A DNA stretch of 64,000 nucleotides from the NCBI RefSeq assembly GCF_021295395.1, contig NZ_JAIWOU010000001.1, positions 2,175,001 to 2,239,000 on the forward strand, written 5' to 3'. Shown one piece after another: positions 7,379 to 32,850 of the stretch (position 1 is the first letter of the stretch; every line of letters starts with the position of its first letter). The position numbers and the translations under genes were made by a program. This DNA is from Komagataeibacter sp. FNDCR2. Lineage in GTDB: Bacteria > Pseudomonadota > Alphaproteobacteria > Acetobacterales > Acetobacteraceae. The notes below the pieces were generated by a model. The model saw nothing but the letters and a program-made list of their open reading frames with translations, did not search any database and was not told where the DNA came from.

Positions 7379-7615
7379 TCTGGTAAAATGGTTTCTTCTG
7401 ACTGTTGCGGGGGCATCAAGTTGAAAGCAGGATATCCAGACGGATAACCCCCTTCAGGTTTACTATGCGGGCCCCAGATGATCAACTGGAACCGAACCAA
7501 GGGCAACAGATAAACCAAAGATATAATTGGCCTACATAAGGACGCGTTACATCCCGGTGCCGGATTTACTTTTGAACAGGATTAAAAAGTTGTGTTCATG
7601 CTTTTTAGGAGGGAA

Positions 7616-8269
7616 CTATTGGTAAAGAACCTGCGATGCGGCAATGGCCTCTTCCACCGTGTCATAAAACGTCAGGTGACCATCACGTAAAATGGCGCCT
7701 GTATCACAGTAGTCACGCAGCGTATTAGGGTCATGCGAAACCATGACAAGACTGCCGTGCTGGCGACGCTCAAGCAGGGCGTCACGGCACTGCGTCCGGA
7801 AGGACTGATCGCCTACGGCCGTGACCTCATCCACCAGATAACAGTCGAATTTGATGGCAAGCGAAACCGCAAAGGCCAGACGTGACAACATACCTGAGGA
7901 ATATGTCTTTATCGGGACATGGAAATAATGGCCCAGACGTGCAAAGTCGTTGACATAATAAAGCATTTCATCAATAGGCCGACCGTAGATGCGCGCGATG
8001 AACCGCGTGTTGTCCGATCCGGTCAGGCTGCCCTGAAACGCGCCACCAAACCCCAATGGCCATGAGACGGACATTTCCCGGGTGATCGTGCCGCTGGTCG
8101 GATATTCAATGCCTGCGATCATACGGGTCAGGGTTGATTTCCCCGCGCCGTTCACGCCCACCACGCCAATCGCCTGGCCCCGCTCGATTGTAAAGGACTG
8201 ATGATCCAGCACGCATTTGTTGATACCACGGGCATGATAGACTTTGGTGACATTATCAAATCTGATCAT
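7616..8269 (-). CDS. kpsT: KpsT-like polysaccharide export ABC transporter, ATP-binding protein
   Basis: ATPase subunit of a capsule/O-antigen ABC exporter at the inner membrane, 217 aa. Walker A is GVNGAGKST (38-46), the signature is SSGM (124-127), Walker B is CYLVDE (143-148) and the switch histidine lies in VSHD (177-180). Length and the short C-terminus match KpsT (no Wzt-type carbohydrate-binding tail). The cognate permease KpsM is expected next to it but is not found in either direction in this window; KpsE is also missing. It lies in an AT-rich patch, 125 bases from a small ORF. Confidence 0.9.
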   Translation of the reverse strand: MIRFDNVTKVYHARGINKCVLDHQSFTIERGQAIGVVGVNGAGKSTLTRMIAGIEYPTSGTITREMSVSWPLGFGGAFQGSLTGSDNTRFIARIYGRPIDEMLYYVNDFARLGHYFHVPIKTYSSGMLSRLAFAVSLAIKFDCYLVDEVTAVGDQSFRTQCRDALLERRQHGSLVMVSHDPNTLRDYCDTGAILRDGHLTFYDTVEEAIAASQVLYQ

Positions 8270-8394
8270 GCGGGTATTCTACGATTTTCGCGCCAGCTTG
8301 ACGACAGGAATTTACGCGGTCGGTCATGTTAAAACCGACAGGTGCGGATCCACGCGAAGTGCAGCCGCATTATGGATTCCCGGCCATTATTTCA

Positions 8395-8598
8395 TCAGCA
8401 TGTTCCGACAGGGCATATCGGTCTGGGGGGATAAAGTTTTTCTGTTTTCAGTGCCCTGTCGATATATTCCTGTTTTCTAATGGTGTGTTTCAGGTAATAA
8501 TCCCGATATTCGTCTGGCACTTTCGGGTGCAATGCACAGACGAACGCGGATATATCGAATATAAATAATATTATTGAAATGATGGTATATTTTTTCAT
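8395..8598 (-). CDS. Small predicted secreted or membrane-anchored protein
   Basis: 67 aa, function unknown. Its ATG follows directly after the TAG of the upstream membrane glycosyltransferase gene (stop 8599-8601, start 8596-8598), an arrangement typical of coupled translation. Residues 1-22 form a lysine-led hydrophobic segment that could be a signal peptide or single membrane helix. The rest is charged and tyrosine-rich and ends in a proline-cysteine motif (PRPICPVGTC). AT-rich codon use matches the neighbouring glycosyltransferase. No catalytic motif is visible. Confidence 0.5.
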   Translation of the reverse strand: MKKYTIISIILFIFDISAFVCALHPKVPDEYRDYYLKHTIRKQEYIDRALKTEKLYPPRPICPVGTC

Positions 8599-9741
8599 CT
8601 AGATAAGTAAAATATTCCTGTGGAACCACAATTCGATTACGACGATATGCAGGATGAACAGAATCGTCAAGATTTTAGATTGTGTCTTCATGGGTTTGGA
8701 AAGCACGAGAAAAGCCAGGAATTCCATCATGAGCGGATTAGAAAACGCATAGCGTTCAATGGACTGCAAACCCGTGGACGCTGCGATGAACATGATGGGC
8801 AGGAGGATAAGGGCGCTGAGATCCCATTTCATCCGGATCATTCGGTATGAAAAATAGCATGCCCCAATAAAAAAGATGAAAAATTCAATCCTGTGGTTAT
8901 GTCTCTGTTTTATATCATGAATAATACCAAGGGGGAGGAACCTGAAATGCCTGTTCCATGTTGCCTCCACATGAGAAAATGCAAAACCGTCGCCTGTTAC
9001 ATGTAAAAGATAGAATACAAAGATGGAAAGACCCGCCCCGGCAGCGGAAAGAAGCAGGGCACTTTCCTGAAGGGGGGAGACAAGTTTTTTCCATGTGGAA
9101 GAAATGTTTTTCATATCCATCTGTCGGCCGGTCCACCACCCGGCGATCAGTGAAGCGGCAACAAAGCCGGTAGGGCGGGAAAGACTGAGCAGGAAACACA
9201 AAAAGGCTGCCCATGGAACGGCGTTACGCTGGAGGGCGATAAGGATGGAGATTAGGAGAATGCCAAAAACACCCTCTGAATACTGGGCGGTGTACCAGAC
9301 ATTGAATGGATATATGACACAGAAAAGGGCAAAGCCGGTTCTATCGACACCAATGCCGCGCCCGGTCATTTCCCTGTGGCACAGATAGATAAGCACGGGC
9401 CACAACACAAGGTTGAGATCCAGTTCCGCCCATAGGGTACTGATATGGAATACGGCCTGTATGATATGGGACAATGCGGGATAAAGCGGGAAAAAAGGCC
9501 AGTTGGCCTTGGCCATTTCCCGCGGATCATGAAGAACGGGAAGGGGGGAATACCCGTGTTTGGCAATATCCAGATACCAGATACAATCCCATTGGCATGT
9601 ACTATTTGCCACGGATGTGTGGGGAGGCGTAAGGATATAATACAGCAGGAAGTTCAGGGAGCATAGAAAACATATAAATATGAAAAATATCAGGTTATTA
9701 TTGTTAACTAATGTTCTGAATTTTTCAAAACCATACTTCAT
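8599..9741 (-). CDS. Multi-spanning GT-C glycosyltransferase (PIG-V/mannosyltransferase-like)
   Basis: 380 aa integral membrane protein with about nine hydrophobic helices. The N-terminal loop motif QWDCIWYLDIAKHGY (50-64), followed by NWPFFPLYP, a YSEG motif, SRPTG and a late ERYAFSN, matches the pattern of PIG-V-like and related GT-C enzymes that use polyprenyl-phosphate sugars outside the membrane. The upstream GtrB-like gene, 33 bases away, would supply the polyprenyl-phosphate sugar, so the pair probably decorates a periplasmic or surface glycan. Base composition is much more AT-rich than the genome background, suggesting recent acquisition. Confidence 0.75.
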   Translation of the reverse strand: MKYGFEKFRTLVNNNNLIFFIFICFLCSLNFLLYYILTPPHTSVANSTCQWDCIWYLDIAKHGYSPLPVLHDPREMAKANWPFFPLYPALSHIIQAVFHISTLWAELDLNLVLWPVLIYLCHREMTGRGIGVDRTGFALFCVIYPFNVWYTAQYSEGVFGILLISILIALQRNAVPWAAFLCFLLSLSRPTGFVAASLIAGWWTGRQMDMKNISSTWKKLVSPLQESALLLSAAGAGLSIFVFYLLHVTGDGFAFSHVEATWNRHFRFLPLGIIHDIKQRHNHRIEFFIFFIGACYFSYRMIRMKWDLSALILLPIMFIAASTGLQSIERYAFSNPLMMEFLAFLVLSKPMKTQSKILTILFILHIVVIELWFHRNILLI

Positions 9742-9774
9742 AATTTATTCTCATATAAATAATTTTTAGAGTAT

Positions 9775-10773
9775 CTATTTATATTTTTGTGTCAATGTGA
9801 GTATTCTGCTGTGGAAACCCTCTTTCTCCTCGATATGAAACCGGGGGCGCTGCTTGGTTTCCAGATAGATTTTGCCGATATATTCTCCAATAATCCCAAG
9901 GCTCAGCATCTGGATTCCGCCAATAAAGAAAATGGCGACGATAACGGATGCCCATCCCTGTATCGGGTTTCCGGCTATTTTATTTATCAAAACCACGACA
10001 ATCGCCAGCACGGACATAAAACTGATACAGAAACCACCCAGCGTGATCAGCCTGAGTGGCGTGACGGTCATGGACGTGATGCCCTCCAGCGCCAGCGCGA
10101 TCATTTTATGAAGGGGGTATTTGGAAACTCCCGCCGTACGCTCCCTGCGGTCGTAATGAACTTCCGTTGAGGGAAAACCGATAAGCGGGATCAGGCCGCG
10201 AATATAAATGTTCCGTTCCCGGTATTCCAGCAGCGCATCCCGGGCACGGCTGCTTAACAGGCGGAAATCGGCATGATTGAAGACCTGCCGGACCCCCATC
10301 GCGGTCATGAGCCGATAGAACATTTCCGCCGTTATGCGCTTGAAAGCCGTATCCGCCTGCCGACACGACCGGACACCGTAAACAACATCATGCCCGCCCA
10401 GATAGGCGCGCACCATTTTTTCTATGGCGGCAGTGTCATCCTGCAGGTCGGCATCGATACTGACGATAATATCCGCCCCATCCGCATGGGCCAGACCGCT
10501 TAACAGGGCAGCCTGGTGCCCCTTGTTGCAGGACAGTTTGAGACCGCGGACATAAGCATGCCGCGTAACGGCAGTATTGATCTGTGCCCATGTATCGTCG
10601 CGGCTGCCGTCATCCACGAATAACAGGTAGCTTTCCGGGCTTATCAGGCCGCCCTCAACCATGGTGCGCAGGCAGTTTCCCAGTTCCGTCAGGCAGACAG
10701 GAAATATCTCTGATTCGTTGTAACAGGGTACAACAATGGCAAGACACGGGGCGGGACAGGGCTGCACGTTCAT
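9775..10773 (-). CDS. GtrB-like polyprenyl-phosphate glycosyltransferase (GT2)
   Basis: Transfers a sugar from a nucleotide donor to undecaprenyl phosphate on the cytoplasmic face. GT2 fold: IVVPCYNES (13-21), FVDDGSRDD (52-60), SIDADLQDD (105-113). Two C-terminal transmembrane helices (about 236-260 and 270-295) are followed by a short tail with GEYIGKIYLETKQRP, a common end of this subfamily. At 332 aa the length is standard. The next gene downstream is a GT-C enzyme that could use the product. A GtrA-type flippase is not seen nearby. Confidence 0.88.
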   Translation of the reverse strand: MNVQPCPAPCLAIVVPCYNESEIFPVCLTELGNCLRTMVEGGLISPESYLLFVDDGSRDDTWAQINTAVTRHAYVRGLKLSCNKGHQAALLSGLAHADGADIIVSIDADLQDDTAAIEKMVRAYLGGHDVVYGVRSCRQADTAFKRITAEMFYRLMTAMGVRQVFNHADFRLLSSRARDALLEYRERNIYIRGLIPLIGFPSTEVHYDRRERTAGVSKYPLHKMIALALEGITSMTVTPLRLITLGGFCISFMSVLAIVVVLINKIAGNPIQGWASVIVAIFFIGGIQMLSLGIIGEYIGKIYLETKQRPRFHIEEKEGFHSRILTLTQKYK

Positions 10774-14869: not shown

Positions 14870-15235
14870 ATGACCGCCGACGGGCGCATCCCCCTGGAAT
14901 TCCTGACCACCACGACCGGGCTGGCCCCGCGCCCCGACACCCTGCTGGTGACAGGCGCCGACATGCCTCCCCCCCCCGGGTGGGCCGGGTTGGTCGTGGT
15001 GCCCGCCCGGGCCGCCACCGCGTTCGGGCACGGAACGGGCTGCCAGTGCTGCACGGGGCGGGGTGGAACGGTTGCGGCGACACTGGGCGACATTTTCCGC
15101 CAGCGCGCCACCGGCGGGCTGGAATGGTTCACGCGCGTGGCCGTGCTGCCGCCCGTGGGGCAGGCGCGGGCCTGGCGCGCGGCGCTGGAGGGGGATGTGC
15201 TGGTCAGCGCGCGCTTCGCCCTGCCCGCCGCCTGA
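14870..15235 (+). CDS. Small GCxCC-motif protein (CobW/COG0523-like fragment)
   Basis: 121 aa. A GGAG ribosome site lies 7 bases before ATG 14870, so translation is credible. The centre reads GHGTGCQCCTGRGGTVAATL, close to the metal-binding GCxCC loop of COG0523 GTPases together with the helix after it, and the following DIFRQRATGGLEWFTRVAV matches the next helix and strand of that fold. The GTPase P-loop (GxxGxGKT) is absent from the N-terminus and the usual C-terminal domain is missing. It may be a degenerate paralogue or a stand-alone metal-handling protein. It is divergent from metH. Family assignment rests on my motif reading. Confidence 0.6.
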   Translation: MTADGRIPLEFLTTTTGLAPRPDTLLVTGADMPPPPGWAGLVVVPARAATAFGHGTGCQCCTGRGGTVAATLGDIFRQRATGGLEWFTRVAVLPPVGQARAWRAALEGDVLVSARFALPAA

Positions 15236-15333: not shown

Positions 15334-17547
15334 GTGGGCCATACAGACCACTCAGCGGACCCGGCCGCCAGCGGGCACGGGGCCGCACGGCGCGCGCCGG
15401 AACTGATCCGCCTGCAGGCGGTGCTGCGCGCGGCGCGTTTTCATGGCATCGACCTTGACGTGCATGATTTTGCCGGCGCGCCGGATGAAAGCGTGCCCTC
15501 CATTCCGGCACTCATACGCTGGGTGGAGGAAAATGGCGGCACCGCCCGTGGCATGCACCTGCAATGGCGCGCGCTGGTGCGCATGCGCGACATGCCGCCG
15601 GTCGTGCTGATGTTCGCCGATGGGTCGGCGGGGCTCATGGTCGGCGCGGATGAGGCGACGGGCGTGGTCTGGCTGGCCGATCCGTTCGCCAGTCCCGACG
15701 CGCCGCCGGTCGCGGTCAATGAACTGCGCCTGCGCGATGTCTGGACGGGGGCCGTGCTGCTGGTGCGCGCGGGGCATCAGGGCGCGGCACCCGAACCGCC
15801 GGTCGATTTCGCATGGCTGCGCGGACTGGTGCTGGGGGAGCGGCGGCTGCTGCGCGATGTGATCATCGCGTCCATGGTCATAAGTGTCCTGGCCGTTTTC
15901 CCGCCGCTTATCGTCATGCAGGTGATTGACCGGGTGGTGAATTTCCACTCCATGGCCACGCTCATTTCCCTGACCGGGCTGGTCGGGGTCATGGCGTTTT
16001 ATGAAATCCTGCTGACCCATGCCCGGCGCGAGATCACGCTGGTGCTGACCACACGGCTCGATACGCGCATCTCGCTGGCGGTGTTCGACCGGCTTCTCGC
16101 CCTGCCGCTGGAGTTTTTCGAACGTGAGCAGGCGGGCAACGTGATCGGCCGGGTCGGGGCCATCTACCGGGTGCGGCAGTTCCTGACCGGGCGGCTGCTC
16201 AATACCTTTCTGGACCTGTTCACGCTGCTGGTGGTGCTGCCGTTCCTGTTCTGGCTCAGCCTGCCGCTGGCGTGGATGACGCTGGCGGCGGCGGGGCTGA
16301 TCGGGGTGGTGATCGTCGTGGCGATGCCCGCCATGGCGCGGCTCGTGGCCCGGCAGGTACGCGCCGAGATGGACCGCAGCGCCGCCCTGCACGAAACGGT
16401 CGCCGGTATCCGCACGGTCAAGACGCTGGCGCTGGAGCCGGTGCGCCGGGAGGTGTGGGATGAAAAGACCGCCAGCGTCGTCACCGCCTCGCTGGATGCG
16501 GGGCGCATGGGCAACTGGGTGGCCACCGCCGTCATGCCGCTGGACCTGTTCATCAATCGCGGCATCATTCTGGTCGGGGCCTACCTGGCCATTACCGCCA
16601 CGACTTCGGGCCTGGAGGCGGGCGCGCTCATGGCGTTCGCGATGCTGGGCGGGCGTGTCGCCGCCCCGCTGGTCAGCATGGCGCGGCTGATCGACGATTT
16701 GAACGAGGTCCGCAGCGCCCTGGCCGAGGCAGGCTCCGTGCTCAACCGCCCGACCGAGACCCGCGCCCTTACGACCGGCCTGCGCCCGCCCATTCGGGGT
16801 GCGCTGTCCTTTTCGGATGTCGGCTTCACCTATCCCGGCGCACCAGGCCCCGCCCTGTCGGATGTCACGTTTCGCGTGCCCGCTGGCGCGATGCTGGGGC
16901 TGGTCGGGCGCAGTGGCTCGGGCAAGTCCACCATCACCCGGCTGCTGCAGGGCGTGAGCCGTGGCTATACCGGGCACCTCCGGCTTGATGGCGTGGATCT
17001 GCGTGAAATCAACCTGACCTACCTGCGCCGTTCGTGCGGGGTTGTGTTGCAGGACAATTTCCTGTTTCGCGGCACCATCCGTGACAACATCATCGCCGGC
17101 CGGCCCGGCCTGACGCTGGAAGACGTGGTGCGCGCCGCCCGCCTCGCGGGGGCCGAGGAATTCATCGAGCGCATGCCCGCAGGCTACGATACATGGATCG
17201 AGGAAGGTTCGACCAACATATCGGGCGGGCAGCGCCAGCGCCTTGCGATCGCGCGCGCGGTGATTTCCGACCCGAGGCTCCTGATCCTTGATGAAGCCAC
17301 CTCCGCCCTCGATCCGGAAAGCGAGGCCGTGGTCAACGCCAATCTGCGCCATCTTGCCCATGGGCGGACCATGGTGATCGTGTCGCACCGTCTCGCCTCG
17401 CTGGTGGATTGCAGCCAGATCTGCGTACTGGACCGGGGGCGTGTCGTCGATATCGGCACGCATGGCGAGCTTCTGGCGCGGTGCGGTCTCTACCGCACCC
17501 TGTGGATGCAGCAGAACCGTTTCACGGACAGGGGGGACGCGGCATGA
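15334..17547 (+). CDS. Type I secretion ABC transporter/permease (HlyB-like)
   Basis: Inner-membrane ATPase of a type I secretion system, 737 aa. Residues about 22-145 resemble the peptidase-like domain of HlyB, but neither the catalytic Cys nor His is present, so it should bind rather than cleave substrate. The membrane domain covers about 165-450 with six helices. The ATPase domain has Walker A GRSGSGKST (525-533), signature SGGQ (630-633) and Walker B with D-loop LILDEATSALD (650-660), then IVSHRL. GTG 15334 is preceded by AGAGGGG. The stop overlaps the start of the adaptor gene (ATGA). First gene of a six-gene operon with glycosyltransferases. The substrate is unknown. Confidence 0.92.
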   Translation: MGHTDHSADPAASGHGAARRAPELIRLQAVLRAARFHGIDLDVHDFAGAPDESVPSIPALIRWVEENGGTARGMHLQWRALVRMRDMPPVVLMFADGSAGLMVGADEATGVVWLADPFASPDAPPVAVNELRLRDVWTGAVLLVRAGHQGAAPEPPVDFAWLRGLVLGERRLLRDVIIASMVISVLAVFPPLIVMQVIDRVVNFHSMATLISLTGLVGVMAFYEILLTHARREITLVLTTRLDTRISLAVFDRLLALPLEFFEREQAGNVIGRVGAIYRVRQFLTGRLLNTFLDLFTLLVVLPFLFWLSLPLAWMTLAAAGLIGVVIVVAMPAMARLVARQVRAEMDRSAALHETVAGIRTVKTLALEPVRREVWDEKTASVVTASLDAGRMGNWVATAVMPLDLFINRGIILVGAYLAITATTSGLEAGALMAFAMLGGRVAAPLVSMARLIDDLNEVRSALAEAGSVLNRPTETRALTTGLRPPIRGALSFSDVGFTYPGAPGPALSDVTFRVPAGAMLGLVGRSGSGKSTITRLLQGVSRGYTGHLRLDGVDLREINLTYLRRSCGVVLQDNFLFRGTIRDNIIAGRPGLTLEDVVRAARLAGAEEFIERMPAGYDTWIEEGSTNISGGQRQRLAIARAVISDPRLLILDEATSALDPESEAVVNANLRHLAHGRTMVIVSHRLASLVDCSQICVLDRGRVVDIGTHGELLARCGLYRTLWMQQNRFTDRGDAA

Positions 17548-18998
17548 GCGCGCAGGATCATGACCTGTCCCCGGTTCCAAATCCGCAGGGCGCGGCCACG
17601 GGGGAGATGTCCGTCGTGCCGCCAGCGGGGGGGCAGGCCCCGGCTGAGCTGCCGCCCGCGCTGCTGGCCTTCTATTCGCCCAGCGCGGCGCTGATCGAAC
17701 TGCCGCCATCGGACGCGGCGCGCTACGTGATCTGGATTGTCGGCGCGCTGGTCGCGGCGGCGCTGGCGGTGATGACGTTCCTCCCGCTGGACAGGGTGGT
17801 CAGCGTCAACGGCAGGCTGAGCCCGTTTGACGACACGATGGTCCTCCAGCCGCTGGAAACCGCGATCATCCGCTCCATCGACGTGCATGAGGGCGACCGG
17901 GTGCGCAAGGGGCAGGTGCTGGCCCGCCTCGACCCGACCATGACTGACGCGGATGTCACCAACCTGCGCCGGCAGGTCATGGCCTACCGCGCGGAAGTCG
18001 CCCGCCGCATGGCGGAGGCGACCGGCCAGCCCTACGTGGCGGATATGAAAGACCCCGCTTCCGTGCAGGAGGCGGCGGCCTATCTGCGCCGGCAGGCGGA
18101 ATACAACGCCCAGATGGCCAGCTATGACCGCCAGATCGCGGGGCTGGAAAGTGAGTTGCAGGGCCATGAGGCGAGTGCCGCGATGTATGCCGCCCGTGTC
18201 CGTGTCGCGCGGGATGTGCAGGATATGCGCGTGCGCCTTCAGCATGAGCAGGTGGGCAGCCGCCTGTCCACGCTGGCGGCGCAGGATACCCTGATGGAGG
18301 TGGTGCGCGCGCAGGTCTCCGCCCGGCATGAGGCCGACAGCACCCGCGCCCGGCTCGATGCCATGAAGGCCCAGCGCGATGGGTACGCCAGCAACTGGCA
18401 CGCCACGGTGTACCAGGATCTCGCGCTGGCCCAGCACCGGCTGGCCGATGCCGATGGCGGCTACAGCAAGGCCATGCTGCATCATGACCTGATCGTCATG
18501 CGCGCCGGGCGCGACGCGGTGGTACTCAGCATCGCGCACCTGTCCACCGGGTCCGTCATACAGGCGGCCTCACCCCTCATGACGCTGGTGCCGCTGGGCG
18601 GTCATCTGGATGTGGAGGCCAGCCTGCGGGGCGTGGATGCGGGTTATGTGCGCGTGGGCGACCGGGCCTTGCTGAAATTCGCGGCCTTTCCCTACACCCA
18701 GTACGGTGGGGCCGAGGCCAGCGTGCGTGTCATCAGCGCCGATTCGTTCGATACCCGCTCTGCCCCGGGGGCGGAAGCGGCCCAGCAGGGCGGTGATGGC
18801 GCGCTCGACCCGCAGGCGGCCTATTACCGCGTGCGCCTGTCCATTGACCGTTACACCCTGCATGGGGTGCCGCCTTTCTTCCAGCCGCAGCCGGGCATGC
18901 CGGTGGAAGCCGACATCCATGTCGGGCGGCGGACCATGATGCAGTACCTGCTCAACCGCCTGCTGCCCGCCGTGACCGACGGCATGCGCGAACCCTGA
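17544..18998 (+). CDS. HlyD-family type I secretion membrane fusion protein
   Basis: Periplasmic adaptor that would link the upstream ABC transporter to an outer-membrane TolC channel. ATG 17544 overlaps the ABC stop by four bases, giving 484 aa. A single transmembrane helix lies near 65-85 after a proline-rich cytosolic tail. Then come a first lipoyl half (LQPLETAIIRSIDVHEGDRV), a long alanine/arginine-rich coiled-coil hairpin (about 140-310), the second half with HHDLIVMRAGRDAVVL, and a C-terminal beta-barrel. No TolC-like gene is in the window. Confidence 0.9.
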   Translation: MSAQDHDLSPVPNPQGAATGEMSVVPPAGGQAPAELPPALLAFYSPSAALIELPPSDAARYVIWIVGALVAAALAVMTFLPLDRVVSVNGRLSPFDDTMVLQPLETAIIRSIDVHEGDRVRKGQVLARLDPTMTDADVTNLRRQVMAYRAEVARRMAEATGQPYVADMKDPASVQEAAAYLRRQAEYNAQMASYDRQIAGLESELQGHEASAAMYAARVRVARDVQDMRVRLQHEQVGSRLSTLAAQDTLMEVVRAQVSARHEADSTRARLDAMKAQRDGYASNWHATVYQDLALAQHRLADADGGYSKAMLHHDLIVMRAGRDAVVLSIAHLSTGSVIQAASPLMTLVPLGGHLDVEASLRGVDAGYVRVGDRALLKFAAFPYTQYGGAEASVRVISADSFDTRSAPGAEAAQQGGDGALDPQAAYYRVRLSIDRYTLHGVPPFFQPQPGMPVEADIHVGRRTMMQYLLNRLLPAVTDGMREP

Positions 18999-19012
18999 GC
19001 GGGCGGCGTCCG

Positions 19013-20779
19013 GTGCGCGGGCTTCTGTCCGGTCTGGTGGGGGGGCTGTCCCCCATTGCCCGTTTCCGCCGCGCGTGCCGCCTGCTGGAACACGAAACGC
19101 GCGCGGCGCAGGGTTTCGCCCTGCTGGGCGTGCTGGCGCGCGACGGCATGGTGGCGGCGCAGTATCAGGTGGCGCGCGCCTATCTGGAAGGGACCGGCGT
19201 GCCCCGCAGCCCCCTTGAGGGCGTGCGCTGGATGCACGCGGCCGCCAGCGCGGGCCATGCGGAGGCCGGTTTTTCCCTTGCCCTCATGCTGCTGCTCGAC
19301 CCGCCGCACCGGCGCGGGGCCGATGGCCTGCTGCCCGTGGCGCTGCCCGCCGGGCTGGAGCAGTGGCCCGACCCGCTCGCGGCCATGGGCTGGGCACGTC
19401 GCGCCGCGCAGGCCGGCCTGCCGGAGGCACAGGCCCTGTATGGCTATCTGCTGGCCACGGGTCCGGACTGCGCGCGCGACCCGCAGGCGGCAGGGGCATG
19501 GTGCGCGCGGGCGGCGCGGGCGGGATGCCCGCAGGGTGATCTGGGTCTGGCGGTAGTACATCTTGCAGCCGGTGGCGACGTGCCGGGCGCCGATCCCGAT
19601 GCGGTGGCCGCCCTGGTCCGTGCGGCGGAACATGGCCTGCCCACGGCGCAGTACATGCTTGGCCTGCTGCATGAACGGGGCTGGGGCGTGTTGCCCGATG
19701 GCGCGCGGGCGGCGCAGTGGTACGCGCGCGCCGCCGAACGGGGCGTGCGCCCCGCGCAGGCGCGTTATGGCGCGCTGCTGCTACAGGGAAAAACGGGGGC
19801 CGCGCGCGATGTCATGGCCGCCGAGACATGGCTGCGCCGCGCGGCGCTGGCGGGGGACCGGGAGGCCGCGACCCTGCTGGGGGATCTGCATGTTCATGGC
19901 GAAGCCGCCATTCCCGGCGACCATGAGGCCGTGAAATGGTATCGCATGGCGGCGGAGCAGGACCACGCCATGGCCTGCCACATGCTGGCGCTGCTGTATG
20001 TGGCCGGGCGCGGTGTCGCCGCCGATGCCGCGCAGGCCCGCATCTGGCTGGAACGTGCCGCCGCATTGGGGAATGTCGCGGCCATGACGGATCTGGCCGC
20101 AACATTCCCGGCCGCAACATTTCCGGCACAGGGGCCGGGAAATGGGGTCGTCGGTGCCCCGGTCGTTGATTTCGCGCCAGCGGCGCGGGCGGGTGACCCG
20201 GTCGCGGCGTTCAACCTTGCCGTCAGCCTGCATGCGGGCGTGGGGTGCGCGCCCCAGCCGGGGCAGGCGGTGGTGTGGATGGAACGCGCGGCCCGTGCCG
20301 GTGTGGTCAATGCCCAGTACTGGCTGGGGCGCATGCTTCTGGGCGGCGGGGGCATGCAGGCCGATCCGGCGCGCGCGCGGTACTGGCTGGAACTGGCGGC
20401 GCGCCATGGCCTGCCGGAAGCCTGTCTGGTCGCGGCCCAGCTCAGGCTGGATGGGCGGGGCGGCCCGCGAGACCATGCGGGCGCGCTGGCGCTCTATCAC
20501 CACGCGGCCCGCGCGGGGCGGGTGGAAGCCATGTTTTCTCTTGGCGCGATGTATGGCGGGGGGCACGACATAGCGCCCGACCGCGCACGGGCGCTGCACT
20601 GGTTCCGTCTGGGCGCGGAGCGTGGCCATGCGCTGTCGCGGCTTATGCTCGGGCGGTATCTGGCCCGTGGCCTGGCGGGTACGGTGGATGTCCCGCAGGC
20701 TCGCTACTGGTTCGGGCAGGCGGCGGCACAGGGTGTGGACGCGGCGCGGGCGGAACTGGAGCATATGGATGCGGGATAG
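19013..20779 (+). CDS. Sel1-repeat (TPR-like) protein
   Basis: 588 aa built almost wholly of Sel1-like helical repeats of about 36 residues, seen as recurring A-x-x-x-LG-x-(L/M)-x-x-x-G-x-G-V and A-x-x-W-(Y/F/L)-x-x-A-A-x-x-G units; I count at least eleven. A protein-interaction scaffold without catalytic residues. It has no clear signal peptide. It starts at GTG 19013, 14 bases after the hlyD stop, and overlaps the next glycosyltransferase by 11 bases, so it belongs to the secretion/glycosylation operon. Possible roles are adaptor, substrate receptor or assembly factor for the glycosyltransferases; this is inference. Confidence 0.85.
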   Translation: MRGLLSGLVGGLSPIARFRRACRLLEHETRAAQGFALLGVLARDGMVAAQYQVARAYLEGTGVPRSPLEGVRWMHAAASAGHAEAGFSLALMLLLDPPHRRGADGLLPVALPAGLEQWPDPLAAMGWARRAAQAGLPEAQALYGYLLATGPDCARDPQAAGAWCARAARAGCPQGDLGLAVVHLAAGGDVPGADPDAVAALVRAAEHGLPTAQYMLGLLHERGWGVLPDGARAAQWYARAAERGVRPAQARYGALLLQGKTGAARDVMAAETWLRRAALAGDREAATLLGDLHVHGEAAIPGDHEAVKWYRMAAEQDHAMACHMLALLYVAGRGVAADAAQARIWLERAAALGNVAAMTDLAATFPAATFPAQGPGNGVVGAPVVDFAPAARAGDPVAAFNLAVSLHAGVGCAPQPGQAVVWMERAARAGVVNAQYWLGRMLLGGGGMQADPARARYWLELAARHGLPEACLVAAQLRLDGRGGPRDHAGALALYHHAARAGRVEAMFSLGAMYGGGHDIAPDRARALHWFRLGAERGHALSRLMLGRYLARGLAGTVDVPQARYWFGQAAAQGVDAARAELEHMDAG

Positions 20780-23711
20780 GCCGCCTCCTGATCCCCCCGC
20801 GCCACCCATTGCCATGCCCGGCGCGGACATGGCGGCGGCCATGCGGCATGCGCACGATCTCGCGGCACGGGGGCAGCCCGCGCTGGCCCTGGCGTGGATG
20901 GAACGCGCGGCGCGGCTGGCCCCGGCGGATGGCGCGGTGCGGTACGCACTGGCGGCGGCCCGTCTGGGGGCTGGTGATGGCGTGGGGGCGGCCCGCGCGG
21001 TGGAAACGGTTCTGGCGTCGCAGCCTTTTCGTGCGGGGGCGCGGCTGCTGGTGCTGGCCTGCTGCATGGCGGGCGCATGGGCGCGCGCGGCCGTGGCGCT
21101 TGAGCATTTCCTGCGCGTGTACGGATTTGATCCGGCCCTGCGCCTTCCCGCGGATCTGGTCTGTCGGCACATGGCGCTGCCCGGCTGGTGCGCGCTGGAT
21201 CCGGATGGCGGATTGCATTGGGGTGGCCTGCCTGATGGAAACCGGCCGGAGGTCAGGCTGGATGGGCGGAAGATCCGGTCTCCTGATCCTGCCCGCAGGA
21301 CCCTGACCCTGCCGCAGCACTGGCGGCGGGCGCGTGACATTATGGTGGTGCATAATGGCATGCCCCTGCTGGGCAGCCAGCCGGACCCGGCGGCGTTATG
21401 TTGCCTGATGGGGGCCGTCTGGCCCGATGTGCAGGGAATCACGGGCTGGATTTTCATGCCCGCGCAACCGGATCGCCGCCCCGAACTCCATGTGGAAGAT
21501 GCATATGGCAGGCGACCGCTGGCCCTGTCCGCTACGGTGCGCGAGGGCGTCCATGGCCCCGGCCTGCCCGTATGGGGGTTTGGCGTGAACTGGGCTGATC
21601 TCGCACCCCATGGCGCCGTGCGCGTCGTCATGGCGGATGGGCGGGATCTGACCGGATCCCCCCTGCCGGTGCGCCTGCCGCGCGCGCGCCGGGTGTTTCC
21701 CGTCGCGCCTGCGCGCGGGGCCGCGCCCGCGCGCGCGCCGCGACGGGCGGCCTGCTGCTGGGTGGTCATTCCGGTCTATGCCGACCGGGCGCGCACGCTC
21801 GCCTGTCTGGACAGCGTGCGCCAGAGCCTGCCGTCACCTGTGGGCGGCGTGACGGTACAGGTCATGGTGGTGGATGACGCCACGCCCGATCCCCTGCTGG
21901 CCCGCGCGCTGGATGACCGCGCCGCCCAGGGGAGCATCATGCTGCGGCGGCACGCGGCCAATGGCGGCTATCCGGCGGCGGTCAATACGGCGCTGGCTGA
22001 TGCGCGGGGCATGGATGTCGTCCTGCTCAACAGCGATACGCTGGTCGCGCCGGGCTGGCTGGAGGAGTTGCGGCGCGTGGCCTATGCGCGCGCCGATACG
22101 GGCACGGTCTCACCCCTTTCCAATGACGCCTCGATCCTGACATGGCCGGATCCGGCCCGGCCGCGACCGCTGGCCGGGGGGGTGGAGGCGGTGCGCCACC
22201 TCATGGCCGCGGCCCTGCGCGCCAATGGCGGGCGGGATGTGGACATTCCCACCGCCCATGGCTTCTGCATGCTGATCCGCCATGACTGCCTGCGCCAGAC
22301 CGGCGCGTTCCGCCCGGAACTGTTTGGCCGGGGGTATGGGGAGGAAAATGATTTTTCCATGCGCGCCCGGCTGGCGGGCTGGCGGCACCGGGCGGCGCCG
22401 GGCGTGTTCGTGGGGCATGTGGGGAGCGTTTCCTTCGGGTGGAGGCGCGCGGCATTGCAGCAGCGCAACCTGTGGGTGCTGAACCGGCTCTTTCCCGGTT
22501 ATGACGCGCTGGTGCGGGCGCATGTCGGGGCCGACCCGCTGGCGGCGGCGCGCCAGCGGCTGTCCCTGCTGGTCTGGCGGGGGGCGGGAGTGCGCGCGGG
22601 ACTGCACGGCGCGGTGCTGCTGGTCACCCATGCCGAGGCGGGCGGGGTCGGTCGGGTCGTCGCCCGGCGCGCGGAAATGTGGCGGGCACGGGGGCTGCTG
22701 CCGGTCGTGCTGGCACCCGCGCCCGGCGGGTTCGTGCTGAGCGATGGCACGCGGGAAGGAGACTGCCCGCCGCTCTCCCTCCGGTGGCCTGAATATGGCC
22801 CCGTGCTTGTCGCGCTGCTGCGCGCGCTGGGGCTGGCGCGCATCGAGGTTCACCACCATCTGGGCCATGGCGGCCGGGTGCGCGAACTGTGCGACCGGCT
22901 GGGCCGCGAATTCGGGGTGCCGTATGACCGCCATGTGCATGACTATGCGGGCATCTGCCCGCGTATCACGCTGGTCGGCCCGGCGGGCCGGTATTGTGGC
23001 GAGCCGGATATGGCGGGGTGCCGGGCCTGTATCCATACGCTGGGCGCGCTGGGGGATGAGGCGGATGTCGGCCGCCTGCGCCGCGATACGGCCCGCGACC
23101 TTGCCCGCGCGCGGCGCGTGGTCGTGCCCAGTGCCGATGTGGCGCGCAGGCTGGGGCGGTACTTCCCCGCTATTTCCTATGACATACAGCCACTGGAAGA
23201 TGACCGCCCCGATCAGGGCCTGACCTGTTTCGCTGCCGCCGGGGATGAGTTGCCCGCCTCCGGCCTGCCGCCGCCCACGGGGCGGTGCCGGGTGGTCGTG
23301 GCCGGGGCGATCGGCCCGGAAAAGGGGCATGGCGTCCTGCTGGCCGCCGCGCGTGACGCCACGGCGCGCGACCTGCCGCTGGAGTTCATGGTGGTCGGGC
23401 ATACATGTGATGACGCGCCCCTGCTGGAAACCGGGCGTGTCTTCATCACCGGCCCGTACGAGGCGGATGACGCGGTGACCCTTCTGCGCGGCTGTGCGGG
23501 GCAGGTCGGTTTCGTGCCCTCGGTCTGTCCCGAGACATGGTGTTTCACCCTCACCCTGCTGTGGCGGGCGGGGCTGCGCAGTGTGGCTTTCGACCTGGGC
23601 GCGCCCGCCGCGCGCATCCGCGCGACGGGACGCGGCTGGTGTGTCCCGCCCGGACTGCCCGTTCACCAATTGAATACGTTTTTGCTGTCTTATGCCCGGG
23701 CCCGTTCATGA
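20769..23711 (+). CDS. Three-part glycosyltransferase: TPR-like N-terminus, GT2, GT4-like
   Basis: 980 aa from ATG 20769, which overlaps the Sel1 gene by 11 bases; an upstream in-frame extension to 20622 is unlikely. Residues about 15-115 are alanine-rich helical TPR-like repeats. A beta-rich linker region follows. A GT2 domain begins at CWVVIPVYADR, has MVVDDAT, VVLLNSDTLV and a GRGYGEENDFSMRARLAGW acceptor-site motif. The C-terminal part begins at LLVTHAEAGGVGRVV and has a GT-B fold with VVVAGAIGPEKGHG and a VCPETWCFTL motif in place of the usual E-x7-E. It could add two sugars in sequence to one acceptor. Such fusions are typical of surface glycan or glycoprotein loci. Confidence 0.85.
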   Translation: MRDRPPPDPPAPPIAMPGADMAAAMRHAHDLAARGQPALALAWMERAARLAPADGAVRYALAAARLGAGDGVGAARAVETVLASQPFRAGARLLVLACCMAGAWARAAVALEHFLRVYGFDPALRLPADLVCRHMALPGWCALDPDGGLHWGGLPDGNRPEVRLDGRKIRSPDPARRTLTLPQHWRRARDIMVVHNGMPLLGSQPDPAALCCLMGAVWPDVQGITGWIFMPAQPDRRPELHVEDAYGRRPLALSATVREGVHGPGLPVWGFGVNWADLAPHGAVRVVMADGRDLTGSPLPVRLPRARRVFPVAPARGAAPARAPRRAACCWVVIPVYADRARTLACLDSVRQSLPSPVGGVTVQVMVVDDATPDPLLARALDDRAAQGSIMLRRHAANGGYPAAVNTALADARGMDVVLLNSDTLVAPGWLEELRRVAYARADTGTVSPLSNDASILTWPDPARPRPLAGGVEAVRHLMAAALRANGGRDVDIPTAHGFCMLIRHDCLRQTGAFRPELFGRGYGEENDFSMRARLAGWRHRAAPGVFVGHVGSVSFGWRRAALQQRNLWVLNRLFPGYDALVRAHVGADPLAAARQRLSLLVWRGAGVRAGLHGAVLLVTHAEAGGVGRVVARRAEMWRARGLLPVVLAPAPGGFVLSDGTREGDCPPLSLRWPEYGPVLVALLRALGLARIEVHHHLGHGGRVRELCDRLGREFGVPYDRHVHDYAGICPRITLVGPAGRYCGEPDMAGCRACIHTLGALGDEADVGRLRRDTARDLARARRVVVPSADVARRLGRYFPAISYDIQPLEDDRPDQGLTCFAAAGDELPASGLPPPTGRCRVVVAGAIGPEKGHGVLLAAARDATARDLPLEFMVVGHTCDDAPLLETGRVFITGPYEADDAVTLLRGCAGQVGFVPSVCPETWCFTLTLLWRAGLRSVAFDLGAPAARIRATGRGWCVPPGLPVHQLNTFLLSYARARS

Positions 23712-23796
23712 CCACAGGAAAGAGGCCCGTCTTGCTTCCCATTTCTCAGGCCGGTCAGCATTTTCCCTTTTCCTTCTGTCCGGGAAGGGAAGGATA

Positions 23797-24789
23797 ATGG
23801 GAATTCAGCCCACCCCCCTCCCCGCCGGGCAGGCAGGCACGATACAGGCCAGCGCCCGGCTTATCCGGCTGGAGGCCGGTACGTACTGCATCTTTCACGC
23901 CCCGGCCCCGGTGGTCGCCGCCGTGGGGGGCGTATCGGGCATGCGGATCAGCGTGCCGCCGGGCATGGCGCATGTGCGGATCAGCACATTTGATGCGGAA
24001 GGCTGGATCGGCGCGCGGGACGGGGCCGCGCTGGTACGGGTGCCCGACGATGGGGGGGCGGTACTGGTCACCACCTATCGTGACGGGACGGAAGGCCGTG
24101 ACCTGCCGGGGGTGCAGGTGGTGCGCCTGTCCGGTCCCGCCCCGCGCGTGGACAACCCGGTACCCGCGCCGCCGGGCGCCGAACCCGTGGTTGTGGAAGA
24201 GGAAGGCGGCATGACCGCCCATATCCAGCGCCGGGGCGACGTAAAGGCCGCACTGGGGGAATGGATGGGGGAGCGTGGCAGCGGCCAGTGGGTGGAGGGA
24301 TTCGCCATTGTGCCCCCGGACGGCATCGCCGCGTGCGATCTGGAATATCAGGCCATACTGGGTCAGGACTGGTTCTCCCCCTGGGTGGAGGGCGGGGCGT
24401 ATTGCGGCAGCCGGGGCATGGCCCTGCCGGTGCTGGGGCTGCGCGTCCGGCTGAAAGGGGAGGCCGCCCGGACATTGCAGTGCCATGTCGAGGCCGGTTT
24501 TACCGATGGGACCCGCCTTGGGCCGGTGGAAGACGCCCCGGTCATGACCCCGGCCCTGACCCCGCTCGAGGCCTTCCGCATTCACATCCGGCCCCGCGCC
24601 ATCGACCAGACCCCGCCCCCTGCGGCCCCGGCGGAAGACGTAGTGCTGGCGGCCACCCCACCTGCCACGCGCGCGCGGCGGCCCCGGCGGGCCATCCCCG
24701 CCCGTACGGCATCGCCACAGGGCAAAACCGCGCGGAACGTGGCCGATGGCCCCCGGCCATGGTGGCGGCGCAAACCCGCGCAATCGTAA
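23797..24789 (+). CDS. Uncharacterised protein with ChW-like tryptophan pattern
   Basis: 330 aa, unknown. A strong ribosome site (AAGGGAAGGA) precedes ATG 23797. No signal peptide is seen. The N-terminal 120 residues look like beta strands (GTYCIFHAP, MRISVPPGMAHVRI, ALVRVPDDGGAVLVTT). Residues about 145-235 contain HIQRRGDV, SGQWVEGFAI, LEYQAILGQDWFSPWVEGG, YCGSRGMALPVLGLRVRL. This resembles the order of Trp and Gly in ChW (clostridial hydrophobic W) repeats, by eye only. The C-terminal 50 residues are Pro/Arg-rich and basic. It lies between two glycosyltransferase genes in a type I secretion operon, so it may be the exported substrate or a glycan-binding partner. Confidence 0.65.
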   Translation: MGIQPTPLPAGQAGTIQASARLIRLEAGTYCIFHAPAPVVAAVGGVSGMRISVPPGMAHVRISTFDAEGWIGARDGAALVRVPDDGGAVLVTTYRDGTEGRDLPGVQVVRLSGPAPRVDNPVPAPPGAEPVVVEEEGGMTAHIQRRGDVKAALGEWMGERGSGQWVEGFAIVPPDGIAACDLEYQAILGQDWFSPWVEGGAYCGSRGMALPVLGLRVRLKGEAARTLQCHVEAGFTDGTRLGPVEDAPVMTPALTPLEAFRIHIRPRAIDQTPPPAAPAEDVVLAATPPATRARRPRRAIPARTASPQGKTARNVADGPRPWWRRKPAQS

Positions 24790-24808
24790 CGGGACGGAGG
24801 AGGGATGG

Positions 24809-26062
24809 ATGAAATACCTGTTCGTACACCAGAATTTTCCGGGCCAGTTCGTGCATCTCCTGCGCGACCTGCATGCGCGGGGCGGAAACGAGGTTGTTTT
24901 CATAAGTGAAACAGGGCGCATGCAGATGCCCGGCGTGCGGCGGGTCTGCTACAGCCTGCCACCGGCGGCGCGCGTTGACGCCCCGGCCCCCGTGGGGGAA
25001 CTGGCCCGTGGCATGCAGCGCGCGGCGGAGGTGGCGCGCGCGGCGCGCACGCTGCGCGGGCTGGGATATGTGCCCGACATCATCATCGGCCACCATGGCT
25101 GGGGGGAGATGCTGGAACTGGCCGATGTGTACCCCGATGTGCCGATGCTGGGATATTACGAATTCTTCTACCACCCCACCGGCCTCGATGTCGGGTTCGA
25201 CCCGGAATTCGCGCCGCCAGCCAGTGTGGCGCCCCTGGTGCGCGCGCGTAACAGCCTGAACCTGCTGGCCCTCGCGGGGCCGGGATGGGGGCATACGCCC
25301 ACCCGCTTCCAGCGCGATACCTATCCCGACTGGGCACGCGGGCGTCTGACCCTGATGCCGGAGGGTGTGGATCTGGAAAAATGCGCGCCCGCGCCCCATG
25401 CCCGCATGCAGCCTTTCACCCTGGGCGATATTCATGTCCGGCCGGGTGAAAAACTGGTGACCTATGTCGCGCGCGATCTGGAACCCTATCGTGGGTTCCA
25501 TGTCTTCATGCGTGCGCTGCCCCGTATCCTGCGCGCGCGACCGGATGCGCGGGTGATCATGGTGGGGGGGGACGGGGTCAGTTATGGCGGTCGCGCACCC
25601 GCCGGCGCGACATGGCGGCAGCATATGCTGGCGGAACTGGGGGGTGTGCTGGATCTGTCGCGGGTCCATTTCGCGGGCCGGGTGGATCATGGCGGTTTCC
25701 GCCGCCTGCTCCAGCGGTCGGACGCGCATGTGTACCTGACATATCCGTTCGTGGCGTCATGGTCCCTGCGTGAGGCCATGGCCTGTGGCTGCGCCATTGT
25801 GGGGAGCCGGACCCCGCCGGTGGAGGAGTTCGTGCAAGATGGCCGCACCGCGCGGCTGGTACCCTTCCTTGAACCCGGGCGCATAGCCGATGGCGTGCTG
25901 GAACTGCTGGAAGACAGGCGTCTGGCGCGCCGCCTGCGCGCGCAGGCGCGCGCCCGGGCGGAAGACAGTCTGGACATGCGGACCTATATGGCGCGCTATC
26001 ACTCGCTGATCGGCCAGCTTGTCGCCTGCGGGGGGCGTCCCGCCCTGTCGGAAGTGGCCTGA
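24809..26062 (+). CDS. GT4-type glycosyltransferase
   Basis: 417 aa from ATG 24809, 19 bases after the previous stop with GGAGGAGGG upstream. GT-B fold: N-terminal YLFVHQNFPGQF (glycine-poor acceptor loop typical of this subgroup), a central LMPEGVDLEK motif, VTYVARDLEPYRGFHVFMRA (start of donor domain), VIMVGGDG and a final AHVYLTYPFVASWSLREAMA where the GT4 E-x7-E is reduced. Last gene of the six-gene secretion/glycosylation operon and convergent with ppa. Donor and acceptor are unknown. Confidence 0.85.
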   Translation: MKYLFVHQNFPGQFVHLLRDLHARGGNEVVFISETGRMQMPGVRRVCYSLPPAARVDAPAPVGELARGMQRAAEVARAARTLRGLGYVPDIIIGHHGWGEMLELADVYPDVPMLGYYEFFYHPTGLDVGFDPEFAPPASVAPLVRARNSLNLLALAGPGWGHTPTRFQRDTYPDWARGRLTLMPEGVDLEKCAPAPHARMQPFTLGDIHVRPGEKLVTYVARDLEPYRGFHVFMRALPRILRARPDARVIMVGGDGVSYGGRAPAGATWRQHMLAELGGVLDLSRVHFAGRVDHGGFRRLLQRSDAHVYLTYPFVASWSLREAMACGCAIVGSRTPPVEEFVQDGRTARLVPFLEPGRIADGVLELLEDRRLARRLRAQARARAEDSLDMRTYMARYHSLIGQLVACGGRPALSEVA

Positions 26063-26887: not shown

Positions 26888-26961
26888 GCGCCCGTAGCTC
26901 AATTGGTTAGAGCGGGCCGCTCATAACGGCTTGGTTGCGGGTTCAAGTCCTGCCGGGCGCA
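26888..26961 (+). tRNA. tRNA with anticodon CAT, probably tRNA-Ile2 (lysidine-modified)
   Basis: 74 nt cloverleaf: acceptor GCGCCCG/CGGGCGC, D arm TAGCTC...GAGC, anticodon stem GGCCG/CGGCT with loop CTCATAA, variable TGGTT, T stem GCGGG/CCTGC, discriminator A. CCA is not encoded. It is not the initiator, because 1-72 is a G-C pair and the anticodon stem lacks three G-C pairs. The C4-G69 and C5-G68 pairs, the CTTGGT variable region and GGTTCAAGTCC look like tRNA-Ile(CAT) of E. coli rather than elongator Met, so TilS modification is expected. Elongator Met remains possible. Confidence 0.85.
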
Positions 26962-32290: not shown

Positions 32291-32519
32291 GTGTCCTACC
32301 GCCCCGTCTATGTCGATCATAACAAAGGATGGGGGCCATACCATACCGCCATGCCCTGTCCTAGTCATGTTGTTCCGGTCCGTGTTTCGCGGCGCCATCA
32401 TGGCGCATGGGGTGGGCGCGGGCCAGCGGTTTTGCATGCCGGGCGGCACGGGCGCAAACGGATTCCCGGGCTGGTTCGGGGCGTCGCGCCATCGTCGTGT
32501 TCCCGCCCGGCCATACCCC

Positions 32520-32547
32520 TTGCCATATGCCGTGGCGCTCCCTATGT
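32520..32547 (+). promoter_or_regulatory. Candidate sigma-70 promoter of ssrA
   Basis: TTGCCA (32520-32525), 16-base spacer, CTATGT (32542-32547). A start near 32554 would place the 5' end just before the first hairpin of the acceptor RNA (GGGGC-TT-GCCCC). Confidence 0.45.
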
Positions 32548-32552
32548 TCGGA

Positions 32553-32850
32553 AGTGCAGGAGGGGCTTGCCCCTTGGCTATGGCGATAAACGGCGCGTGG
32601 AATAAGTGTTGTGGACCCGGGGGCGGTACCCGGCGTCTCCACCAATTTCCCCCCCGATGGGGAACATGGGGACGAAACAGGCTCGACACGCATGGTAAAG
32701 ACCCGCCTTTTGCCCGGCATTGTACCACCGTTATCGGGCTAAATCACAAGTGCCAACGATAACTCTGAGGTGCTCGCTGTCGCTGCATAAGCGATAAGCG
32801 CGGTTCGGGAGGGCACCGGGCAACAGAAGCCCTCCCACTTACATTTTCTT
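32553..32850 (+). ncRNA. ssrA: tmRNA, circularly permuted two-piece form
   Basis: Rescues stalled ribosomes and tags their products. The tRNA 3' half lies upstream: T arm CCGGG/CCCGG, acceptor strand CGTCTCC and encoded ACCA ending at 32644. After a 23-base spacer the coding piece begins at 32668 with GGGGACG, which pairs with CGTCTCC over 7 bp, followed by the D-loop-like GAAACAGGCTCGACA. CACGC (32687-32691) pairs with GCGTG (32595-32599) to join the pieces (helix 2). The tag frame 32752-32790 reads ANDNSEVLAVAA and a TAA located in a small hairpin. A GGGAGGGC/GCCCTCCC stem (32807-32836) and a T-rich stretch end the gene. The outer ends are estimates. Confidence 0.93.

What the first reader, a model, noticed from the sequence alone, without database searches (positions are those of the whole stretch)
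15334..26062. Type I secretion operon fused to a glycosylation module, with no classical substrate
Six plus-strand genes with overlaps or short gaps (4-base overlap, 14, 11-base overlap, 85, 19) encode an HlyB-like ABC transporter, HlyD adaptor, Sel1 scaffold, a TPR-GT2-GT4 enzyme, an unknown beta-rich protein and a GT4 enzyme. There is no RTX gene, C39-leader peptide or TolC. The tight order suggests one machine that glycosylates and exports a protein or glycan. I do not know of a described system with this exact set.
Basis: partly seen in the sequence, partly recalled or inferred. Interest (0 to 1): 0.75.

Follow-up and report, generated by a model that had tools for sequence, protein, structure and literature searches.

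The report
Secretion-plus-glycosylation operon with distant cargo
Acetic acid bacteria keep one fixed six-gene block that couples a protein-export pump to sugar-attaching enzymes, and the most likely cargo is a small RTX-like surface protein encoded elsewhere in the genome, which makes this a possible 'glycosylate, then export' machine.

Summary
Six plus-strand genes (15334-26062) encode a HlyB-like ABC exporter, HlyD, a Sel1 protein, a TPR-GT2-GT4 enzyme, a two-domain beta protein (called Unk here) and a GT4, with the spacings stated. The order is intact in 75 of 80 named Acetobacteraceae loci; the other 5 are cut by contig ends. Unk matches occur in 104 of 150 sampled family genomes. In another order, pieces recur rearranged: GT2-GT4 fused to Unk, and Unk-methyltransferase-GT4 beside a related ABC/HlyD.
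'No classical substrate' holds only for the window. The genome has one RTX-type protein over the Pfam cut-off (478 aa, about 140 kb away) with a typical C-terminal type I signal, and the operon's HlyD is the only match over the T1SS HlyD cut-off in each of 19 Komagataeibacter genomes. That protein family tracks Unk in the family (81/23/5/41) but not in the other order. A member sits next to Unk/GT genes in two other genomes.
Best reading: a T1SS exports this Ser/Thr-rich protein, encoded in trans, probably after glycosylating it. Export and glycosylation are inferred, not shown.

The parts
15334..17547 (+). HlyB-type ABC exporter (permease/ATPase) with an N-terminal C39-like region without cysteine
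   Evidence: PF00664 98.6 bits, PF00005 105.2 bits, no C39 peptidase match; best TIGR01846 HlyB 511.1 bits (below its 725.55 cut-off); no Cys in residues 1-150; (rows with stops or under 70% length dropped): Walker A, Walker B Asp/Glu and H-loop in 64 of 64 rows, signature in 64 of 64 but for one R-to-K; 53 of 64 rows without any Cys in the first 140 aa
17544..18998 (+). HlyD-type periplasmic adaptor
   Evidence: TIGR01843 311.3 bits (cut-off 208.65); the only match over the cut-off in this genome (33 of 38 first-look candidates scored)
19013..20779 (+). Sel1-repeat protein, likely scaffold
   Evidence: 10 Sel1 stretches, 225.7 bits
20769..23711 (+). TPR-like helices + beta region + GT2 (GT-A) + GT4 (GT-B) glycosyltransferase
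   Evidence: AlphaFold2 model mean pLDDT 87.7; NSD motif residues in 73-75 of 75 rows, GYGEEN residues in 71-75 of 75; the first 12 Foldseek rows are polypeptide GalNAc-transferases (about 300 aligned columns)
23797..24789 (+). Unk: two beta domains, the second ChW-like, and a low-confidence tail rich in basic residues
   Evidence: 36 of 37 members match PF07538 ChW at E<=0.01, the window protein 19.6 bits against cut-off 22; model mean pLDDT 79.5; fused to GT2-GT4 in two genomes of other families
24809..26062 (+). GT4 glycosyltransferase of the Glyco_trans_4_3 kind
   Evidence: PF12000 169.8 bits; SWSLREA residues in 74-76 of 76 rows

Best explanation
The operon is a dedicated type I secretion machine with its own glycosylation module. 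The ABC exporter and HlyD, with a TolC-type channel encoded elsewhere, export a small (about 400-600 aa) RTX-like, Ser/Thr/Asn/Gly-rich beta-roll protein through its C-terminal signal. The cargo gene lies in trans (in this genome at G000:C1:2338894-2340330). Before export, the TPR-GT2-GT4 enzyme, helped by Unk as an acceptor- or glycan-binding subunit, and the GT4 put a short glycan on the cargo in the cytoplasm. The Sel1 protein holds enzymes and exporter together. Supported by sequence evidence: gene identities, conserved cassette, a single T1SS-type HlyD and a single RTX-type cargo candidate in this genome, co-occurrence in the family, a few direct linkages. Inferred: export of this cargo by this pump, glycosylation of the cargo, the roles of Sel1 and Unk, the sugar.
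For: Order kept in 75 of 80 named loci, 5 cut at contig ends, although flanking genes differ between genera. In another order GT2-GT4 and Unk are one protein followed by a methyltransferase and the GT4, and Unk-methyltransferase-GT4 lies beside an ABC (44% identical) and HlyD in rearranged order (L212, L213). The C39-like region has no Cys, the form a review links especially to RTX cargo (PMC8277102, passages seen). The operon's HlyD is the only TIGR01843 match over the cut-off in each of 19 own-genus genomes; of the six other own ABC_membrane proteins three are best matched by MsbA, two by CydD/CydC, one has no match at E<=1e-100. This genome has one RTX-type protein over the cut-off (two short sub-threshold frames besides), with C-terminus GGNTTIGLEDSTRITFVGVTDLKAQNFKT; a homologue is in each of 19 own-genus genomes. 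Cargo family against Unk in 150 family genomes: 81 both, 23 Unk only, 5 cargo only, 41 neither at cargo E<=1e-20. RTX gene next to the GT2-GT4-Unk fusion in G312; next to Unk, GT2 and GT4 genes in G576; 4.6 kb from a GT2-GT4/Unk/GT4 block in G570, with two nucleotide-sugar genes between. The 16 aligned cargo proteins are 19-27% Ser+Thr with at most one Cys. None of the six genes looks like a lipid-carrier transferase, flippase or polymerase.
Against: No experiment shows secretion or glycosylation. 23 of 104 Unk-positive family genomes lack the cargo family at E<=1e-20, 15 even at 1e-10, among them nearly closed genomes of about 2 Mb (G470, G507, G553). At 1e-10 the association is weaker (89/15/25/21). 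The test is not corrected for relatedness, the cargo profile was seeded mostly from operon-bearing genomes, and a few of the 104 Unk matches cover one domain only (G547, G564). In the order of G312 the two families do not co-occur (5 both, 8 Unk only, 8 cargo only, 22 neither; my tally, cargo at E<=1e-8). No cargo gene was found in the 80 named loci (up to 10 kb each side) or in the 32 unnamed loci around Unk. In G576 and G570, where the RTX gene is near Unk/GT genes, no HlyD or full ABC exporter was found nearby, and G030 has an Unk-GT4 pair alone, so the sugar genes can stand without the pump. G022 has the cargo but no Unk and no HlyD over the cut-off. The GalNAc-transferase rows reflect a common GT-A fold. 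The RTX profile score in G312 carries a large composition bias (154.9 bits, bias 117.1).
Confidence: 0.5

Rival explanations
1. The ABC/HlyD pair exports the distant RTX-like protein, but the GT genes build or trim a cell-surface glycan that the protein binds or is anchored to; the protein itself is not glycosylated.
For: GT2 and GT4 families are common in LPS and exopolysaccharide loci (recalled); among the nearest named models for the GTs are exopolysaccharide enzymes, far below cut-offs. The window has a capsule-export-like cluster at 6062-10773. In G570 nucleotide-sugar genes stand with the RTX and GT genes, which fits a surface glycan as well.
Against: None of the six genes looks like an initiating transferase, flippase or polymerase; TPR and Sel1 parts suggest protein clients (inference); RTX, Unk, GT2 and GT4 stand together in G576.
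Confidence: 0.25
2. The pump exports another, unrecognised protein, and the RTX-like family uses a different route.
For: 15 of 104 Unk-positive family genomes have no cargo-family match at E<=1e-10; in the order of G312 the families do not track each other; no linkage in 80 named loci; G022 has cargo without this HlyD.
Against: In each of 19 Komagataeibacter genomes there is one HlyD over the T1SS cut-off and a cargo homologue; direct linkages of cargo and Unk/GT genes exist in G312 and G576.
Confidence: 0.15
3. The ABC/HlyD pair exports a glycan or glycolipid made by the GT genes, as glucan exporters do.
For: The ABC also matches glucan and lipid A exporter models, more weakly and below their cut-offs; HlyD-type partners occur in glycolipid export (recalled).
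Against: Best family match is HlyB, with a C39-like region, and the adaptor passes the type I HlyD cut-off; RTX genes are linked to the GT set in G312 and G576.
Confidence: 0.07
4. Neighbouring genes with unrelated roles kept together by slow rearrangement.
For: The 80 named loci come from one family, so shared ancestry alone gives much of the order.
Against: Flanks differ between genera while the six stay together, and parts re-associate in new arrangements, including a fusion, in another order.
Confidence: 0.03

Closest known systems
Type I secretion system of the HlyB/HlyD kind (RTX exporters)
   Same: ABC with Cys-less C39-like region, HlyD-type adaptor, candidate cargo with RTX repeats and C-terminal signal
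   Different: Below the HlyB subfamily cut-off; cargo gene unlinked in this genome; no TolC gene in the operon; Sel1, two glycosyltransferase genes and Unk are built in
Accessory Sec export loci of serine-rich repeat adhesins with Gtf glycosyltransferases (recalled)
   Same: Works alike if the reading is right: cytoplasmic glycosylation of a Ser/Thr-rich surface protein coupled to a dedicated exporter
   Different: Exporter is a type I ABC/HlyD, not SecA2/SecY2; enzymes are GT2-GT4 and GT4 proteins; cargo is RTX-like and encoded in trans
HMW1/HMW2 two-partner secretion with the HMW1C cytoplasmic glycosyltransferase (recalled)
   Same: Cytoplasmic glycosyltransferase paired with a dedicated exporter of an adhesin
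   Different: Other exporter type and other glycosyltransferase family
SwmA of swimming Synechococcus WH8102
   Same: Listed among S-layer glycoproteins in a review table (PMC2943079, passages seen); its type I export and GT genes needed for it are recalled only
   Different: Cyanobacterium; no Sel1/Unk cassette known to me

Membership tests
Type I secretion system (HlyB/HlyD) | ABC exporter with intact ATPase motifs | tested here: met
   Walker A, Walker B Asp/Glu and H-loop in 64 of 64 aligned rows; signature too, one row with R-to-K
Type I secretion system (HlyB/HlyD) | HlyD-type adaptor over the curated cut-off | tested here: met
   TIGR01843 311.3 bits, cut-off 208.65
Type I secretion system (HlyB/HlyD) | ABC over the HlyB subfamily cut-off (TIGR01846) | tested here: not met
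   511.1 bits, cut-off 725.55; LssB also below its cut-off. So: a type I exporter by adaptor and layout, not filed as HlyB proper
Type I secretion system (HlyB/HlyD) | Outer-membrane TolC-type channel available | tested here: met
   24 OEP-domain matches in the genome, none in the operon; which one is used is unknown
Type I secretion system (HlyB/HlyD) | Cargo with C-terminal signal and RTX repeats | tested here: inconclusive
   A matching protein exists in the genome but is unlinked; export not tested
C39 peptidase-containing bacteriocin exporter | Catalytic cysteine in the N-terminal peptidase domain | tested here: not met
   No Cys in residues 1-150; no C39 peptidase match at E<=0.01
ChW (PF07538) | Unk over the Pfam gathering score | tested here: inconclusive
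   Window protein 19.6 bits against 22; 36 of 37 members match at E<=0.01, best 2.6e-7
Glycosyltransferase families GT2 and GT4 | Pfam cut-offs and catalytic motifs | tested here: met
   PF00535 50.2 bits (23.3), PF12000 169.8 (25), PF00534 64.5 (26.4); motifs. Exception: the GT4 half of the large enzyme is below its cut-off (PF13692 22.3 against 27)
RTX repeat family (PF00353), cargo candidate | Cargo over the Pfam gathering score | tested here: met
   26.5 bits against 23 for the window genome's protein; the homologue in G031 has no PF00353 match
Protein O- or N-glycosylation system | Glycan found on the protein | not testable with these tools
   needs mass spectrometry
Accessory Sec glycosylation/export locus | SecA2/SecY2 and Gtf1/Gtf2 | not tested
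   resemblance in logic only, recalled

The most novel reading that the evidence does not exclude
A previously undescribed 'glycosylate, then export' type I secretion machine, ancestral in Acetobacteraceae, in which a Sel1/TPR-scaffolded GT2-GT4-Unk complex modifies small RTX-like surface proteins encoded in trans and hands them to a dedicated HlyB/HlyD-type exporter; a type I counterpart of the accessory Sec system.
Probability: 0.4. Interest if true: 0.8.

Novelty: new variant of a known kind. Interest (0 to 1): 0.6.

Why it matters
Protein glycosylation built into a type I secretion operon is not something I found described in nine library searches, and unlinked cargo is easily missed. Unk, the marker of the set, is matched in 104 of 150 sampled Acetobacteraceae genomes, and the full operon stands in Komagataeibacter, Acetobacter, Gluconobacter, Gluconacetobacter, Bombella and other genera, so it could govern surface properties of bacteria used in food and cellulose making (uses recalled). 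It names a specific cargo, enzymes and pump, so a few deletions and one mass-spectrometry run in harmless laboratory strains would settle it. It also gives a first context for the Unk/ChW-like domain.

Tried and rejected
Substrate inside or beside the operon: a profile search of the ORFs (80 aa or more) in the 80 named loci and 32 unnamed loci found no cargo-family gene there. Cargo by the RTX Pfam family alone: poor guide, since operon-less family genomes hold many RTX repeats (33-129 matches in five of six; the sixth, G022, has 2), so I moved to the full-length cargo family. Viral contigs with Unk: no relative. Structure of Unk: Foldseek had no match at E<=0.001 and VIA-align rows stay under Z 8, mostly on the first domain, so no fold or function is claimed. 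PDB sequence search with Unk: three rows, best E 0.25. Internal promoters: scan no better than shuffles. Regulatory RNA upstream of the ABC gene: none at gathering level in the window. Co-occurrence in the order of G312: no association. Papers: searches gave no paper; 51, 65, 92, 98 none on this system by title and start of abstract; 85 listed 12 papers, none on it by title; 50 led to the SwmA passage. Nine of ten searches used, so 'not in print' means only these searches in this library. On rechecking I found that G570 has the sugar genes without the transporter and mended the text; the odds stay, because this strengthens the sugar-cargo link as much as it weakens the sugar-pump link.
Full report
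WHAT IS THERE. The ABC protein has a transmembrane and an ATPase domain and matches the HlyB subfamily best, but below its curated cut-off (511.1 against 725.55 bits). Its N-terminal region has no cysteine and no C39 peptidase match. HlyD passes the type I adaptor cut-off. The Sel1 protein has ten repeat stretches. The large enzyme has a TPR-like helical N-terminus, a beta region, a GT-A domain with GT2 motifs and a GT-B domain. The fifth protein, called Unk here, has two beta domains; the second is ChW-like in 36 of 37 aligned members. The sixth is a GT4 with an N-terminal Glyco_trans_4_3 domain.

WHOSE GENOME. The genus is inferred from that.

CONSERVATION. Of 32 loci taken from the window genome and unnamed relatives, 26 (the window's own included) have all six genes in order; three are cut at contig ends (L025, L027, L029), two are extra copies of Unk or a piece of it (L031, L047), and one (L032) has only an Unk-GT4 pair. 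Of 80 named loci, 75 have the full order and the other five begin within 113 bases of a contig end. These 80 are the best of 297 relatives found, so they lean to close ones. MetH and Ppa/EttA flank the operon in Komagataeibacter and some others but not generally. Unk is matched in 104 of 150 family genomes, 72 of 102 genera, a few matches covering one domain only (G547, G564), and in 6 of 385 genomes of a class-wide sample, the window's included; two of those six lie outside the family.

OUTSIDE THE FAMILY. In G281 and G312 the GT2-GT4 enzyme and Unk are one protein, followed by a methyltransferase and the GT4. In the order of G312, 13 of 43 genomes have an Unk match, at least one of them (G446) only as a domain on a Ku-like protein. 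In L212 and L213 Unk-methyltransferase-GT4 lie beside a related ABC and HlyD in different gene order or strand, in L215 beside an ABC cut by the contig, in L216 Unk lies beside HlyD; L213 has a response-regulator gene between GT4 and ABC. This re-association is the best argument for a real functional link.

THE CARGO. In this genome the RTX repeat family has one protein over the cut-off: 478 aa, about 140 kb from the operon, ending in a typical type I C-terminus (domain scan). A homologue is found in each of 19 own-genus genomes. Of the 16 relatives aligned, V4, V6 and G8 near the N-terminus are invariant and the C-terminal signal is shared. They are 385-596 aa, 19-27% Ser+Thr, with at most one Cys. 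In the PDB the profile meets the RTX parts of secreted proteases, lipases, epimerases and toxins; no other Pfam domain was found in the window genome's protein. The operon's HlyD is the only match over the type I cut-off in each of the 19 own-genus genomes (31-33 candidates scored per genome), so by elimination it is the likely exporter.

CO-OCCURRENCE. In 150 family genomes, cargo family at E<=1e-20 against Unk at E<=1e-10: 81 both, 23 Unk only, 5 cargo only, 41 neither; at 1e-10 for cargo 89/15/25/21. Fisher values are but relatedness is not corrected, and the profile was seeded mainly from operon-bearing genomes. In the order of G312 there is no association: 5 both, 8 Unk only, 8 cargo only, 22 neither (my tally).

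LINKAGE. In G312 an RTX gene of this family lies about 200 bases upstream of the GT2-GT4-Unk fusion on the same strand (profile E 2.7e-45 with a large composition bias; 2.8e-37). In G576, a family member, RTX, Unk, a GT2-like and a GT4 gene follow each other on one strand (the GT2 match is weak). In G570 the RTX gene lies 4.6 kb from the GT4 end of a GT2-GT4/Unk/GT4 block, with a nucleotide-sugar dehydratase/epimerase-type gene and a dTDP-4-dehydrorhamnose epimerase-type gene between, a hint of a rhamnose-type sugar. In neither G576 nor G570 did I find HlyD or a full ABC exporter in the stretches taken (about 35 and 30 kb), so there the sugar genes stand with the cargo and without the pump. 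No cargo gene was found in the 80 named loci. The three cases came from rows I inspected by eye in a capped list, so no frequency is claimed.

MECHANISM. The best reading is cytoplasmic glycosylation by GT2-GT4/Unk and GT4, then type I export of an RTX-like protein. None of the six genes looks like a lipid-carrier transferase, flippase or polymerase, which favours direct transfer to protein over surface polysaccharide. Foldseek's first rows for the large enzyme are polypeptide GalNAc-transferases, but this is a common fold and shows no acceptor. A review ties Cys-less C39-like domains especially to RTX cargo (PMC8277102, passages seen). My odds are about 0.75 for export of the RTX-like protein and 0.5 for the whole statement.

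NOVELTY. Parts are known; the fixed combination across a bacterial family, with cargo in trans, is not something I found in nine library searches. I class it as a new variant of a known kind.

Noticed in passing
L224:9092-10657 +, L226:9857-11680 -, L228:3528-5012 + (order of G312; similar ORFs in L225, L229): ChW-like domain of the Unk kind at the C-terminus of Ku-like proteins with proline-rich linkers; in L226 the scan gives both Ku (90.8 bits) and ChW (25.7 bits, cut-off 22). The same domain on a sugar enzyme partner and on a DNA-repair protein is unexplained.
   Followed up: partly
window 14870-15235 +: Small ORF (121 aa, CxCC motif) between MetH and the ABC gene, with a tblastn match in 31 of 80 named loci and 15 of 32 unnamed ones, upstream of the ABC gene in those I compared; no Pfam match. 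Possibly a seventh gene of the cluster.
   Followed up: partly
window 6062-10773 -: Capsule-export-like cluster (Poly_export/SLBB protein, ABC ATPase, GT2, one protein without match) in a stretch of low G+C (46-58%), perhaps acquired.
   Followed up: no
L219:9206-12061, L220:15251-18781, L222:15780-19373: Unk-GT4-Unk tandem arrangements in the order of G312.
   Followed up: no
L031:1807-2790 - and L032:7648-9882 -: A lone second Unk gene next to a redoxin and glnE, and an Unk-GT4 pair without the transporter in another genome.
   Followed up: partly
L259:9240-13108 +: RTX-family gene followed by a nucleotide-sugar dehydratase/epimerase-type gene and a dTDP-4-dehydrorhamnose epimerase-type gene, about 2 kb from the convergent GT4 of a GT2-GT4/Unk/GT4 block that lacks the transporter nearby.
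   Followed up: partly
window 32516-32839 + and 26888-26961 +: Alphaproteobacterial tmRNA (also matching the permuted model) and a tRNA gene.
   Followed up: no
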